From Victivallales bacterium (GTDB taxonomy: Bacteria; Verrucomicrobiota; Lentisphaeria; Victivallales; UBA1829), in assembly GCA_016285345.1 (NCBI GenBank), contig JAEEQN010000022.1, positions 1-47,519 on the forward strand: a stretch of DNA of 47,519 nt. The letters are read 5' to 3'. The notes under the pieces were generated by a model. That model saw only the letters and a list, made by a program, of their open reading frames with translations, searched no databases and was not told where the DNA came from. Below, piece by piece: positions 42,298 through 47,519 of this stretch. Position numbers and translations under genes: made by a program. Position 1 is the stretch's first letter; each line of letters opens with the position of its first letter.

Positions 42298-43233
42298 TCA
42301 AATCTCGTAGTTCAGAAACTCTCCGTTCTGGAACTCCACGGACTCGTGGCGTTTGAACTGAAGTTCCGGCATCTTGGCGCTCACGCGGGTCTGTTCGGGG
42401 ACGGATTTGGTGACAAACGCGTTGCCGCCGATCACGACGCCCTCGCTGATCACAGTCTCGCCGCCGAGGATGGACGCGCCAGAATAGATCGTCACGTCGT
42501 CCTCGATGGTCGGATGGCGTTTCGTGCCCTTCAGCTGCTGGCCGCCGCGCGTGGAGAGCGCGCCGAGCGTGACGCCCTGGTAGATCTTGGCGTGTTCGCC
42601 GATCTCCGCGGTCTCGCCGATCACGATGCCCGTGCCGTGGTCGATGAAGAAATACTTCCCGATCTTCGCGCCCGGATGGATATCGATCCCCGTGACGCTG
42701 TGGGCGTGTTCGGTCATGATGCGCGGGATCAGCGGCACGCCGAGCGTGTACAGCTCATGCGCGATCCGGTTCACCATCGTGGCATAGATGCCGGGATACG
42801 AGGAGATCACCTCGTCGCGGCTGAACGCGGCGGGGTCGCCCTCGAACGCGGCCTCGATGTCCGTGGCGAGGTATTCGCGTATCTTGGGGATCGCGGCGAG
42901 GAAAGCGTCCACGATCTCCTCGGCGCGCTTCTGCACCGCGTCGTCCGGCGCGTCGCAGTATGCCTCGGTGAAGAGGCGGAGCGTCTTGGCGATCTGCGCC
43001 GTCAGCACCTCGCTGATCTCCTCGAGCAGCTGGCCGGTGTAGAAGCGTATGTTGTCGCTCCGGAGCTCCTTCTGGTCGAAAAAGCCGGGGAAAATGACAT
43101 ACTGCAGCTTCTTCAGCACAGCCAGGATCAGGTGGCGCTTGGGGAACTGCGTCTCCCCGATCTTGCCGATATGCGGATGCTGAACATAGCTTTCCAGGAC
43201 CGCTTCCAGTACATCGTCCAGTTTGTGACTCAT
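42298..43233 (-). CDS. Serine O-acetyltransferase, EpsC-type, in the encapsulin operon
   Basis: Makes O-acetylserine from serine and acetyl-CoA. A 311-residue protein with the helical N domain (~1-165) and the left-handed beta-helix: GIDIHPGAKIGKYFFIDHGT with the catalytic His, VIGETAEIGEHAKIYQGVTL and KGTKRHPTIEDDVTIYSGAS. The C terminus ends GEFLNYEI with a terminal Ile, as in SATs that dock into cysteine synthase, whereas the copy at 9163 ends in Pro. It is the last gene of the operon, 19 nt after the desulfurase. Serine acetyltransferase beside desulfurase and encapsulin is a recurrent family 2A encapsulin neighbourhood. Confidence 0.93.
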   Translation of the reverse strand: MSHKLDDVLEAVLESYVQHPHIGKIGETQFPKRHLILAVLKKLQYVIFPGFFDQKELRSDNIRFYTGQLLEEISEVLTAQIAKTLRLFTEAYCDAPDDAVQKRAEEIVDAFLAAIPKIREYLATDIEAAFEGDPAAFSRDEVISSYPGIYATMVNRIAHELYTLGVPLIPRIMTEHAHSVTGIDIHPGAKIGKYFFIDHGTGIVIGETAEIGEHAKIYQGVTLGALSTRGGQQLKGTKRHPTIEDDVTIYSGASILGGETVISEGVVIGGNAFVTKSVPEQTRVSAKMPELQFKRHESVEFQNGEFLNYEI

Positions 43234-43252
43234 AGTCGCCCCTTTTCCGCGG

Positions 43253-44842
43253 TCAGTTCAGACGCTTCAGCGCCGCCACCAGCAGGTCGATCTCTTCCGG
43301 CGTGTTGTAGAACGCGAGGACCGGGCGCACCGTGCCCTCCAGGCCGTAGCTCCGGAGGATCGGCTGGGCGCAATGATGGCCCGCACGGACGGCGATGCCC
43401 TGGCTGTCCAGGTATTTTCCGACGGATGCGATGTCGTGGTTGTCCAGCACGAACGACAGCACGCCGGATTTGTCCCGCGTGGTGCCGATCAGGTGAAGTC
43501 CGGGGACCTCGGCCAGACGCGCCATGCCGTACTGCGTCAGCTCGTGTTCATAAGCCGCCACGTTCGCCATGCCGATCTGCATCATGTATTCGAGCGCGGC
43601 GCCCATGCCGACCGCGTCCGCGATGCTGCCGGTGCCCGCCTCGAACTTGTTCGGCGCGCCCTGGTAGATGGTGCGTTCGAACGTTACGTCGGCGATCATG
43701 TTGCCGCCGCCCTGATACGGCTGCGCCTCTCTCAGCGCGTCGGTCTTGCCGTAGACCGCGCCGATGCCGTTCGGCCCGAATACCTTGTGCGCGGAGAACA
43801 CGTAGAAATCCGGGTCAAGCGCCGTCACGTTCACCGGAATGTGCGCCACGGACTGCGCACCGTCGATCAAAATGCGGACGCCGTGCGCATGTGCAATGGC
43901 GACGAGCTCCGCGACGGGCGTGACCGTGCCGAGCACGTTCGAGACATGCGCGACGGACACGAATTTCGTGTGTTCGTTGAAGAGCTTCGTGTACTCGGAA
44001 ATGATGAGCTGGCCGTTCTGGTCGACCGGGATGACCCGGATCTTCGCGCCGGTCGCCGCCGCGATCATCTGCCAGGGCACGATGTTCGCGTGGTGTTCCA
44101 GCAGGGAGACGATGATCTCGTCGCCGGGTTTCAGCAGCGGCCGCACATAGCTCTGCGCGACCAGGTTGATGCCCTCGGTCGTGCCGCGGACGAATACGAT
44201 GTCCCGCGCGTTGCGTGCGCCGAGGAACTTCGCCACGGTCGAACGCGCGTTTTCGTAGGCGTCGGTCGAACGGGCGGCGAGTTCATGTGCGCCGCGGTGC
44301 ACGTTGGAATTCTCGTGCAGGTAATAGTGCGAGATGCGGTCGATGACCTGTTTCAGGCGCTGCGTGGTGGCTCCGTTGTCGAACCAGACCAGCTGTCTGC
44401 CGTTGCTCAGGCGTTCCTGCAGGATCGGGAAATCCGCGCGGATCCGGTCCACGGGGACGGCTCCGACCGAGGCGTGAGTGGTGTGCGGGATATGCTGTTT
44501 CGAATGCGCTTCCGGCGCGCCCGGCACGGGGTCTTCCGCTTTCGCGGCGTCGACCAGGGTCGGCGAATACACGACGGCGGAGGGCGCTGTGGGCGCTCCG
44601 GTGGACGGCATGGGCACGTTCCCGACGGCGGATTCGGCACGAAGCACGTCCGACGCGATCTGGTCCCAGTCCGTACCGGAGGAGGCGGAAGCCGCGCCGG
44701 CAGCCGAGGCAGCCGGAGCGGCGGCGGCATTGGCGTCGGTCGCCAGTTCGTCGCCGCACAGCTCCACCGCCCACTTCAGCAACTCGGCTTCGGTAGGCAG
44801 GCCCGCCGTTGCCGGGTTGGAATCAGGCTTTGTCGTAGTCAT
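43253..44842 (-). CDS. SufS-type cysteine desulfurase with N-terminal encapsulin-targeting extension
   Basis: A PLP enzyme that removes sulfur from cysteine as a persulfide. The 529 residues divide into an extension and a normal SufS body (~131-529). The body has WFDNGATTQRLKQVID, VRGTTEGINLVA, LEHHANIVPWQ, LIDGAQSVAH, the PLP Lys353 in SAHKVFGPNGIGAVYG and active-site Cys491 in RAGHHCAQP. Residues 1-130 are Ala/Pro/Ser-rich and disordered, with two short predicted helices (EAELLKWAVELCGDEL and DWDQIASDVLRAE). Such extensions are the cargo-loading domain of family 2A encapsulin systems. The ATG overlaps the shell gene by 20 nt, which favours stoichiometric co-assembly. The loading role is inferred from family knowledge. 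Confidence 0.94.
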   Translation of the reverse strand: MTTTKPDSNPATAGLPTEAELLKWAVELCGDELATDANAAAAPAASAAGAASASSGTDWDQIASDVLRAESAVGNVPMPSTGAPTAPSAVVYSPTLVDAAKAEDPVPGAPEAHSKQHIPHTTHASVGAVPVDRIRADFPILQERLSNGRQLVWFDNGATTQRLKQVIDRISHYYLHENSNVHRGAHELAARSTDAYENARSTVAKFLGARNARDIVFVRGTTEGINLVAQSYVRPLLKPGDEIIVSLLEHHANIVPWQMIAAATGAKIRVIPVDQNGQLIISEYTKLFNEHTKFVSVAHVSNVLGTVTPVAELVAIAHAHGVRILIDGAQSVAHIPVNVTALDPDFYVFSAHKVFGPNGIGAVYGKTDALREAQPYQGGGNMIADVTFERTIYQGAPNKFEAGTGSIADAVGMGAALEYMMQIGMANVAAYEHELTQYGMARLAEVPGLHLIGTTRDKSGVLSFVLDNHDIASVGKYLDSQGIAVRAGHHCAQPILRSYGLEGTVRPVLAFYNTPEEIDLLVAALKRLN

Positions 44843-47021: not shown

Positions 47022-47300
47022 TCAGCGCCCTCCGGCTATGGCGGGCACGATCATCACCGTCGCGCCAGCCGCGAGCGGCGTGTCGAGGCCGTTCAGTTTC
47101 TTGATGTTGGTCCCGTCGACGAAGACGTTCACGAATCCGCGCAGGGCCGTGTCGTTCTCGTAGATCTGGCGTTTCAGGTCAGGATACTGCGCGGTGAGGT
47201 TGGCGAGGGCTTCCCCCACGGTCGAGCCTTCCGCTTCGACTTCGGACTTGCGGTCCACGAAGGACCTCAATGCGGTCGGGATAAGAATTGTCACGCTCAT
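47022..47300 (-). CDS. ThiS/MoaD-like ubiquitin-fold sulfur carrier ending Gly-Gly-Arg
   Basis: A 92-residue beta-grasp protein: VTILIPTALRSFVDRK, EVEAEGSTVGEALANL, YENDTALRGFVNVFVDGTNI, then DTPLAAGATVMIVPAIAGG. The GG end is the thiocarboxylate acceptor in this family (CysO, MoaD, ThiS). Here a single Arg follows GG before the stop, so the carrier must be trimmed before it can be adenylated. The JAMM protease gene immediately upstream is the obvious candidate. AGGAG lies before the ATG; 18 nt separate it from the protease stop. It resembles CysO more than ThiS, given its operon with serine acetyltransferase, but that is inference. Confidence 0.92.
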   Translation of the reverse strand: MSVTILIPTALRSFVDRKSEVEAEGSTVGEALANLTAQYPDLKRQIYENDTALRGFVNVFVDGTNIKKLNGLDTPLAAGATVMIVPAIAGGR

Positions 47301-47318
47301 GTTACGCTCTCCTTATGG

Positions 47319-47519
47319 TTACGGTTCGATTTCAAATGGTTCGGGGTCGAATGCTTCGCGGCTGATCCGCAGACGCCAGCTGGTCATCAGCTCAGGTCTG
47401 CCCTCCTCCACGCGCAGGATGATGTAGGAATAGAACGGCAGCGCATGGTCGCGGTCGTAGTCCGACGGCTTTGCGGGATGGTCCGGGTGGGAGTGGTGGA
47501 ACCCGACGAGCTCGAGTCC
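47319..47519 (-). CDS. JAMM/MPN+ metalloprotease (Mec-like), 5' end beyond the window
   Basis: Only the last 66 residues are inside the window; the frame enters from the right edge. It contains VGFHHSHPDHPAKPSDYDRD, which fits the zinc motif His-x-His-Pro...Ser-x2-Asp of JAMM proteases, followed by LPFYSYIILRVEEGRPELM, typical of the bacterial Mov34/MPN/PAD-1 family linked to ThiS/MoaD carriers. The upstream Glu of the motif is outside the window. Homologues such as Mec release cysteine from CysO, and others remove residues after the carrier GG. Either role fits the GGR carrier gene next door. Confidence 0.88.
   Translation of the reverse strand, partial: GLELVGFHHSHPDHPAKPSDYDRDHALPFYSYIILRVEEGRPELMTSWRLRISREAFDPEPFEIEP

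What the first reader, a model, noticed from the sequence alone, without database searches (positions are those of the whole stretch)
42298..47519. Encapsulated desulfurase combined with a ubiquitin-like sulfur-relay operon
One minus-strand operon carries a JAMM protease, a ThiS/MoaD-like carrier, a ThiF-rhodanese E1, a family 2A encapsulin, an N-terminally extended SufS-type desulfurase and a serine acetyltransferase, with overlaps or short gaps of at most 60 nt. Desulfurase plus encapsulin plus SAT is a known family 2A neighbourhood. Adding a whole carrier/E1/protease set suggests that sulfur from the compartment is handed to a protein thiocarboxylate and used on O-acetylserine. This would be a closed cysteine storage and rebuilding cycle. 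The coupling of the two modules is the possible novelty.
Basis: partly seen in the sequence, partly recalled or inferred. Interest (0 to 1): 0.93.

Follow-up and report, generated by a model that had tools for sequence, protein, structure and literature searches.

The report
Encapsulin cassette with ubiquitin-like sulfur relay
One bacterial operon carries the genes for a protein nanocage, a sulfur-releasing enzyme that likely sits inside it, and a ubiquitin-like sulfur relay that is predicted to rebuild cysteine from that sulfur; the same core set recurs in genome records labelled as seven bacterial phyla.

Summary
On the minus strand, 42298-47519 encodes a JAMM protease (cut by the contig end), a ThiS/CysO-like carrier, a ThiF-rhodanese E1, a family 2A encapsulin shell, an N-terminally extended SufS-type desulfurase and a serine acetyltransferase. 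A CysM-type sulfhydrylase lies just upstream: it ends contig C33 of the same genome, and the order is unbroken in relatives. The coupling is widespread: of 50 related loci with at least 4 kb on each side, 47 carry E1-rhodanese, carrier and a JAMM near encapsulin and desulfurase, in several gene orders. All relay loci found fall in one encapsulin clade; 27 sampled family 2 loci outside it have none. In the window's genus, JAMM, this carrier and encapsulin were found in the same 4 of 13 genomes. MoaE was found in 0 of 11 genomes. Residues follow the carrier's conserved AGG, or the carrier is fused to the E1 (58 loci), so JAMM processing is implied. Best reading: an encapsulated sulfur store coupled to thiocarboxylate-dependent, CysO-like cysteine synthesis. 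The sulfur hand-over is inferred. No report of the coupling appeared in my searches, but supplements and one key paper were not readable.

The parts
47319..47519 (-). JAMM/MPN+ metalloprotease (Mec+/HcyD-like), 3' part only; 5' part beyond the contig end. Motif HSHP-x(9)-D (HxHx10D) intact
   Evidence: Prok-JAB PF14464 41.5 bits; motif; complete 143-aa same-genus relative in L015, PDB match 2kcq
47022..47300 (-). Ubiquitin-like sulfur carrier (ThiS/MoaD/CysO-like), 92 aa, ends ...PAIAGGR, so one residue follows the GG
   Evidence: PF02597 56 bits, NF041918 68 bits; PDB matches 1v8c and 3dwg_C, which is M. tuberculosis CysO by recall
45834..47018 (-). E1-like adenylyltransferase with C-terminal rhodanese domain (MoeZ/Uba4 type), 394 aa; E1 Cys202, zinc Cys 185/188/259/262, rhodanese Cys351 (roles by recall)
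   Evidence: these cysteines are kept in 72 of 72 aligned sequences, window included
44823..45773 (-). Family 2A encapsulin shell protein (SrpI-like, HK97 fold by homology), 316 aa; SrpI cargo-contact residues F262/Y273 correspond to F272/Y283
   Evidence: NF041162 485 bits over a cut-off of 380; PDB 8t6r, 6x8m; 55% identity to SrpI
43253..44863 (-). SufS-type cysteine desulfurase with Ala/Pro/Ser-rich N-terminal extension of about 118-141 aa (predicted encapsulin cargo, CyD)
   Evidence: NF041166 755 bits (cut-off 800), PF00266 469 bits; 8kg1 552 bits; RAGHHCAQP and SAHK present
42298..43233 (-). Serine O-acetyltransferase (EpsC/CysE-like, N-terminally extended), C-terminal Ile
   Evidence: C-terminal Ile in 57 of 58 SAT-profile hits over 400 bits with a visible end, window included

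Best explanation
The operon encodes a family 2A encapsulin, its likely cargo desulfurase and a ubiquitin-like thiocarboxylate relay, and it is predicted to bank sulfur in the shell and rebuild cysteine from it. Steps. (1) Shown by sequence: shell, desulfurase, carrier, E1-rhodanese, JAMM and SAT are adjacent genes, with a CysM-type sulfhydrylase just upstream in the genus. (2) Inferred from SrpI work: the desulfurase is held inside the shell by its N-terminal extension and takes sulfur from cysteine, leaving sulfane sulfur in the shell. (3) Inferred: the rhodanese cysteine of the E1 picks up that sulfur, as human MOCS3 does from NFS1. (4) Inferred: JAMM trims the residue after GG, and the E1 adenylates the carrier and makes a C-terminal thiocarboxylate. 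(5) Inferred from the CysO pathway: the CysM-type enzyme joins the thiocarboxylate to O-acetylserine made by the SAT, and JAMM cuts cysteine off the carrier. The result would be reversible cysteine storage that never releases free sulfide.
For: Co-conservation: of 50 loci with at least 4 kb flanks, 47 have E1-rhodanese, carrier and a JAMM within 6 kb, 45 also SAT, and 46 a sulfhydrylase-type PLP enzyme (17 OASS; the rest weak desulfurase-profile hits of the Cys/Met type). Gene order differs while the set is kept. One clade holds all relay loci, 84 rows with support 100/100; 27 sampled family 2 loci outside it have no relay. Encapsulin, E1, desulfurase and SAT distances correlate (Mantel r 0.66-0.82, 0 of 500 permutations as high). 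In the genus, JAMM over 80 bits and carrier over 50 bits occur in exactly the 4 of 13 genomes where encapsulin was found. MoaE 0 of 11. Residues follow the conserved AGG in 12 of 12 standalone carriers and 58 of 58 fusions, so JAMM has a job. Cysteines kept 72 of 72. Carrier and sulfhydrylase both match entry 3dwg, CysO with CysM by recall. Precedents, passages read: NFS1 to MOCS3 (PMC3625234); [quoted passage not shown]
Against: No experiment; sulfur transfer from shell to E1 is not shown, and how sulfur would cross the shell is unknown. Desulfurase and cysteine synthesis in one operon would be a futile cycle unless regulated; only an Rrf2-family gene near the cluster in 20 of 80 loci hints at control. 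In 9 of the 47 loci (8 Ruminococcus, 1 Roseburia) the JAMM counted sits by a second E1, not by the carrier-E1 gene. Only 17 of 50 have an OASS within 6 kb. L118, inside the encapsulin clade, has no relay; L054, L077 and L089 show none in the flank seen, and L079 shows JAMM and OASS but no E1 or carrier. Two standalone carriers still end in GG (L026 ...AGGG, L076 ...TGG), so trimming is not needed everywhere. SrpI cargo motifs are not visible in the window's extension. In 37 of 72 E1s, all in fusions, the NLxRQ arginine is replaced. G010 has desulfurase and SAT at a contig end, so the 4-of-13 count rests partly on assembly.
Confidence: 0.6

Rival explanations
1. Two parallel branches of one sulfur-stress regulon: the encapsulin stores sulfur, while the carrier pathway makes cysteine from sulfide or thiosulfate with no direct transfer from the shell. 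Shared regulation alone keeps the genes together.
For: Ordinary family 2A loci have shell, desulfurase and often SAT without the relay, and carrier/E1/JAB/cysteine synthase operons are described without encapsulin (PMC1779556 Table 1 row 4c). A few clade members lack the relay in the flank seen (L118, L054, L089).
Against: The set stays together through several gene orders and across records of seven phyla, and a carrier/E1-cluster gene is directly upstream of the shell in 68 cases. The desulfurase-to-rhodanese step has a direct precedent (PMC3625234).
Confidence: 0.27
2. The carrier is a protein modifier (SAMP/Urm1-like) that tags shell or cargo, and JAMM removes the tag.
For: Best NCBIfam matches are SAMP1 and, under its cut-off, desampylase; the E1's best PDB match is Uba4.
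Against: A sulfhydrylase-type enzyme and SAT are co-encoded in most loci with full flanks (46 and 47 of 50), carrier and OASS match one CysO/CysM structure entry, and a second carrier set comes with O-acetylhomoserine sulfhydrylase-type enzymes.
Confidence: 0.08
3. The carrier, E1 and JAMM serve thiamine or molybdopterin synthesis and sit here by accident.
For: ThiG above 300 bits is present in 5 of 11 encapsulin genomes and in G010.
Against: MoaE 0 of 11, against 11 of 14 control genomes. In the window's genome, G004 and G011 ThiG gives only partial matches of 24-26 bits, just over the family cut-off of 23 and covering about a third of the model, and no match in 3 further genomes. G010 has a separate ThiS-ThiF-ThiG cluster. 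The relay tracks the encapsulin.
Confidence: 0.02

Closest known systems
Family 2A encapsulin with desulfurase cargo (SrpI/CyD of Synechococcus elongatus; Acinetobacter baumannii sulfur-storing shell)
   Same: Shell 55% identical to SrpI, family 2A model over cut-off, desulfurase with long N-terminal extension, SAT next door.
   Different: S. elongatus has cysK, epsC and a small rhodanese but no carrier, E1 or JAMM in the stretch seen. The window belongs to a separate clade on a long stem. The sulfur-storage paper (PMC10836720) was not held; only its title was seen in a reference list.
CysO-MoeZ-CysM-Mec+ cysteine pathway (Mycobacterium; operon types 4c/4d of PMC1779556)
   Same: Carrier, E1-rhodanese, JAMM and CysM-type sulfhydrylase in one gene set.
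   Different: Here the set is joined to an encapsulin, a desulfurase and a SAT. The carrier has a residue after GG or is fused to the E1. The acceptor is probably O-acetylserine, not O-phosphoserine. A sulfur source is encoded alongside.
Thiocarboxylate-dependent methionine pathway of Wolinella (HcyS/HcyF/HcyD by recall; operon type 4e of PMC1779556)
   Same: Many relatives, not the window, add a second carrier (68-79 aa in those read), an E1 without rhodanese, a second JAMM, a TusA-like protein and an O-acetylhomoserine sulfhydrylase-like enzyme.
   Different: That set is described away from encapsulins; the pathway is only cited in PMC6225789 and PMC5764234 (passages).
Uba4/MOCS3-Urm1 with NFS1
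   Same: Desulfurase to rhodanese domain of an E1 to a ubiquitin-like thiocarboxylate (PMC3625234 passages).
   Different: No shell; product is thiolated tRNA or molybdopterin.

Membership tests
Family 2A encapsulin | Shell protein matches the family 2A model above cut-off | tested here: met
   NF041162 485 bits against 380; family 2B model 379 against 400 not reached
Family 2A encapsulin | No cNMP-binding domain | tested here: met
   316 aa, only PF19307 found
Family 2A encapsulin | Adjacent desulfurase cargo with N-terminal extension | tested here: met
   Gene overlaps the shell gene by 41 nt; extension about 118-141 aa. The cargo model NF041166 is not over its cut-off, 755 against 800
[quoted passage not shown]
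   Read by eye: not present in the window's extension; Azospirillum cargo has similar ones
Family 2A encapsulin | Self-assembly and cargo loading | not testable with these tools
   needs purification
CysO-type cysteine pathway | ThiS-fold carrier with GG | tested here: met
   PAIAGG present; ThiS PF02597 56 bits
CysO-type cysteine pathway | Carrier ends exactly in GG without processing | tested here: not met
   Window ends GGR, one residue beyond the end of the 93-residue 3dwg_C chain in the match; 10 of 12 standalone carriers, window included, do not end in GG
CysO-type cysteine pathway | E1 with rhodanese domain and intact cysteines | tested here: met
CysO-type cysteine pathway | JAMM protease with HxHx10D | tested here: met
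   gene cut in the window, complete in L015
CysO-type cysteine pathway | CysM-type sulfhydrylase that takes the thiocarboxylate | tested here: inconclusive
   CysM is the best model, 341 bits under a cut-off of 394; 3dwg_A and 3dki match, but other cysteine synthase B entries match better; substrate not testable
Thiocarboxylate methionine pathway | Second carrier, rhodanese-free E1 and OAH sulfhydrylase in the window's operon | tested here: not met
   No second carrier or E1 among window hits; present in many relatives
Molybdopterin synthesis | MoaE partner in the genome | tested here: not met
   0 of 11 genomes; 11 of 14 control genomes positive. Drafts may be incomplete

The most novel reading that the evidence does not exclude
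A mobile, self-contained cysteine bank: shell and ubiquitin-like relay are one machine. The E1-rhodanese draws sulfur from the desulfurase in the shell, loads it on a carrier that JAMM cuts free from its own activating enzyme, and the sulfhydrylase turns it back into cysteine, in many hosts also homocysteine. The cassette spreads between phyla of gut and rumen bacteria and supplies the missing sulfur donor of CysO-type pathways and the missing exit route of sulfur-storing encapsulins.
Probability: 0.42. Interest if true: 0.9.

Novelty: new variant of a known kind. Interest (0 to 1): 0.78.

Why it matters
Two open questions meet here: how sulfur held in a family 2A encapsulin is used again, and where the CysO-type pathway gets its sulfur ('so far remains unknown', PMC3227635). 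A gene set that joins the two, recurs in records of seven phyla and appears to be inherited together makes both testable with purified proteins. It also shows ubiquitin-like carriers made as precursors, many fused to their own E1, that would need a deubiquitinase-type protease to act.

Tried and rejected
Chance neighbourhood: rejected by 47 of 50 loci and by changed gene orders. Molybdopterin: rejected for these genomes, MoaE 0 of 11. Thiamine: only a 24-bit partial ThiG match in the window's genome, and a separate cluster in G010. Ordinary family 2A locus: rejected, since 28 loci sampled from three phyla (27 outside the relay clade, plus L118) lack the relay, though L105 and L110 have little upstream sequence. 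'JAMM is degenerate': rejected, motif intact. A first regular expression for the second carrier was wrong and gave 0 hits; corrected. A first pass at E1 motifs by regular expression gave low counts because the patterns were too strict; alignment columns replaced them. G010 first looked encapsulin-free; its contig starts inside the desulfurase gene, so it more likely carries the operon, with the shell end unassembled. 'The GG is never terminal', my first wording, was dropped: L026 and L076 chains end in GG. Literature: no listed paper joins encapsulin with the relay in the searches; these lists were capped (20 of 34, 20 of 32,331, 15 of 48, 4 of 4, 4 of 4, 15 of 42) and most papers were seen only as listings.
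Full report
What is there. The window is a complete contig (G000:C22) of a 2.78-Mb draft genome, 83% complete. Its right end carries, on the minus strand, JAMM (cut), carrier, E1-rhodanese, encapsulin, desulfurase and SAT, with gaps of 18, 3, 60, -41 and 19 nt. The shell matches SrpI and other family 2A shells in the PDB by sequence, and both SrpI residues named as near the cargo density are kept, F272 and Y283. 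The nearest encapsulins are mostly from Lentisphaeria and Victivallales records of rumen and gut, 99% for a sheep rumen record.

The upstream gene. Contig C33 ends in a CysM-type sulfhydrylase and a JAMM gene; its last 171 bp match the end of the window's contig at 94%. This fits two strain variants at one junction. Same-genus genomes G011 and G004 have the order OASS-JAMM-carrier-E1-encapsulin-desulfurase-SAT unbroken, and G009 has OASS-JAMM-carrier-E1 on one contig that overlaps both C33 and C22. The gene set is therefore a full CysO-type cysteine route plus a predicted encapsulated desulfurase.

Survey of close relatives. They are the closest encapsulins, so the survey is of this clade, and three genomes contribute two loci each (L036/L038, L037/L051, L060/L061). 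Profiles built from the window's proteins were run on all reading frames. Within 6 kb and on the same strand: desulfurase 80 of 80, E1-rhodanese 71, carrier 69, JAMM 66, SAT 60, OASS 26, and a weak desulfurase-profile hit of the Cys/Met PLP type 46. Among the 50 loci with at least 4 kb on each side, 47 have E1, carrier and a JAMM; the three others are L029 (no JAMM within 6 kb), L047 (masked stretch) and L074 (broken E1 frame). The JAMM is directly upstream of the carrier or fused E1 in 38 of the 47; in the other 9 it lies beside a second E1. Gene order varies: relay before the shell (window, L020, L024, L076), after SAT (L055), with SAT first (L083), or split on both sides (Ruminococcus, Lachnospiraceae). 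Origin labels of relay rows cover Lentisphaerota, Planctomycetota, Bacillota, Pseudomonadota, Spirochaetota, Fibrobacterota and Thermodesulfobacteriota; most are draft bins, but Ruminococcus flavefaciens, two Lachnospiraceae and Treponema zioleckii records are not marked as such.

Carrier processing. All 12 distinct standalone carriers have AGG followed by R, C, F or G, or by 6 to 25 residues; two of them, L026 and L076, still end in GG. In 58 loci the carrier is the N-terminal domain of the E1-rhodanese protein, with an internal AGG in 58 of 58. An AlphaFold2 model of one fused protein (L027, 24 sequences, mean pLDDT 78) leaves residues 89-123, the GG and the linker, below pLDDT 50; Foldseek's best matches are Uba4, then the E1 chains of the MoeB-MoaD and ThiF-ThiS entries. 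JAMM cleavage after GG is therefore implied, not shown.

A second relay. In 42 of 80 loci there is a second E1 without rhodanese; 41 of these have a second carrier ending MGGG plus 1 to 5 residues, 36 a TusA-like frame by motif and 37 a Cys/Met-type hit. One member of each was tested by profile: ThiF, ThiS, TusA, and O-acetylhomoserine/O-acetylserine sulfhydrylase as best model under its cut-off. This resembles the thiocarboxylate methionine pathway cited for Wolinella.

Controls outside the clade. Phylum samples found PF19307 in 17 of 398 Pseudomonadota-centred, 7 of 398 Bacillota-centred and 12 of 387 own-phylum genomes. Of the loci fetched, 28 show SAT, OASS or small rhodanese-type hits or none of these, but no carrier, JAMM or full E1-rhodanese; L119 shows the relay, and L113, L127 and L128 repeat loci already counted. 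In a tree of 113 rows all relay loci lie in one clade (84 rows, 100/100: 74 relay, 9 not seen or broken, 1 without, L118), and 29 of 30 rows without relay lie outside. Five rows, the window, L017, L047, L119 and L129, were put in the relay group by hand. Long branches make the deeper order unsure. Of the nine, L054, L077 and L089 show no relay in the flank available, and L079 only JAMM and OASS. Aliarcobacter cibarius plasmid pACIB, near the base, has OASS-JAMM-carrier-E1-rhodanese-encapsulin-desulfurase-cysE with insertion sequences within the relay.

Gain and loss. In the window's genus, encapsulin was found in 4 of 13 genomes. JAMM above 80 bits and carrier above 50 bits occur in exactly these four; a 20.5-bit JAMM match (G006, under cut-off) and a 23.4-bit ThiS match (G010, over cut-off, from the thiamine cluster) were set aside. 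By counting alone the odds are 1 in 715, but genomes are related and incomplete, and G010 has desulfurase and SAT at a contig end 96% identical to the window, so it probably carries the operon too. Leaving G010 out gives 1 in 495.

What it is not for. MoaE was found in 0 of 11 encapsulin genomes. ThiG is above 300 bits in 5 of 11; the window's genome, G004 and G011 have only 24-26-bit partial matches. The ThiS-ThiF-ThiG cluster of G010 is on another contig than its desulfurase gene.

Mechanism. Shown by sequence: the parts, their order and their co-inheritance (Mantel r 0.66-0.82, 0 of 500). Taken from published work: desulfurase cargo in SrpI (PMC8049743, passages), desulfurase-to-rhodanese transfer in MOCS3 (PMC3625234, passages), CysO chemistry and its unknown sulfur donor (PMC3227635, passages). 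Inferred: that these steps are joined here. A C-terminal Ile in 57 of 58 SATs fits docking to the sulfhydrylase as in CysE-CysK (recalled).

Known or new. The carrier/E1-rhodanese/JAB/cysteine synthase operon is row 4c of PMC1779556 (passages); SAT and rhodanese near family 2A desulfurase loci are reported in PMC8346489 (passages), whose main text has no occurrence of ThiF, MoeB, JAB or ubiquitin. Its 'rhodanese' may include E1-rhodanese proteins; I could not check. I saw no paper that joins the two in the listings, within an open-licence library and without supplements. I therefore call it a new variant of a known kind.

Noticed in passing
42 of 80 loci among L017-L096 (e.g. L057, L063, L075): Many relatives add a second carrier/E1/JAMM/TusA set with an O-acetylhomoserine sulfhydrylase-like enzyme next to the encapsulin genes.
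   Followed up: partly
E1 position 87 of the window protein (NLHRQ) in relatives: In 37 of 72 E1-rhodanese proteins the arginine of the NLxRQ motif, an ATP contact in MoeB by recall, is S, N, C or T. 30 of these 37 loci also have the second E1, but 11 loci with the second E1 keep the arginine.
   Followed up: partly
L129 3517-7979 (Aliarcobacter cibarius plasmid pACIB): Insertion sequences lie between JAMM and carrier and between the E1 part and the rhodanese part of the relay.
   Followed up: no
window:39665-42204: A pair convergent to the operon, a cystathionine-lyase-type enzyme and a PatB-type C-S lyase, adjoins it. PatB genes 86-96% identical occur in only 3 of the 12 other genus genomes, G004, G010 and G011, with operon genes beside them.
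   Followed up: partly
window:9163-10098: A second SAT-like gene on the plus strand of the same contig (388 bits with the operon SAT profile; Hexapep and SATase_N in Pfam) that lacks the C-terminal Ile.
   Followed up: no
L133 (G010:C182): A separate thiamine-type cluster with a 72-aa ThiS-like protein ending GGG, a ThiF-family protein, ThiG (321 bits) and a cysteine synthase.
   Followed up: partly
L074 9191-10945: The C-terminal part of the E1-rhodanese and the encapsulin read as one open frame, while the E1 N-terminal part is not in that frame; assembly error or decay.
   Followed up: no
L118: A Bacillota-sample encapsulin at the base of the relay clade with desulfurase and a rhodanese about 5 kb away but no relay, possibly the state before the modules joined.
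   Followed up: no
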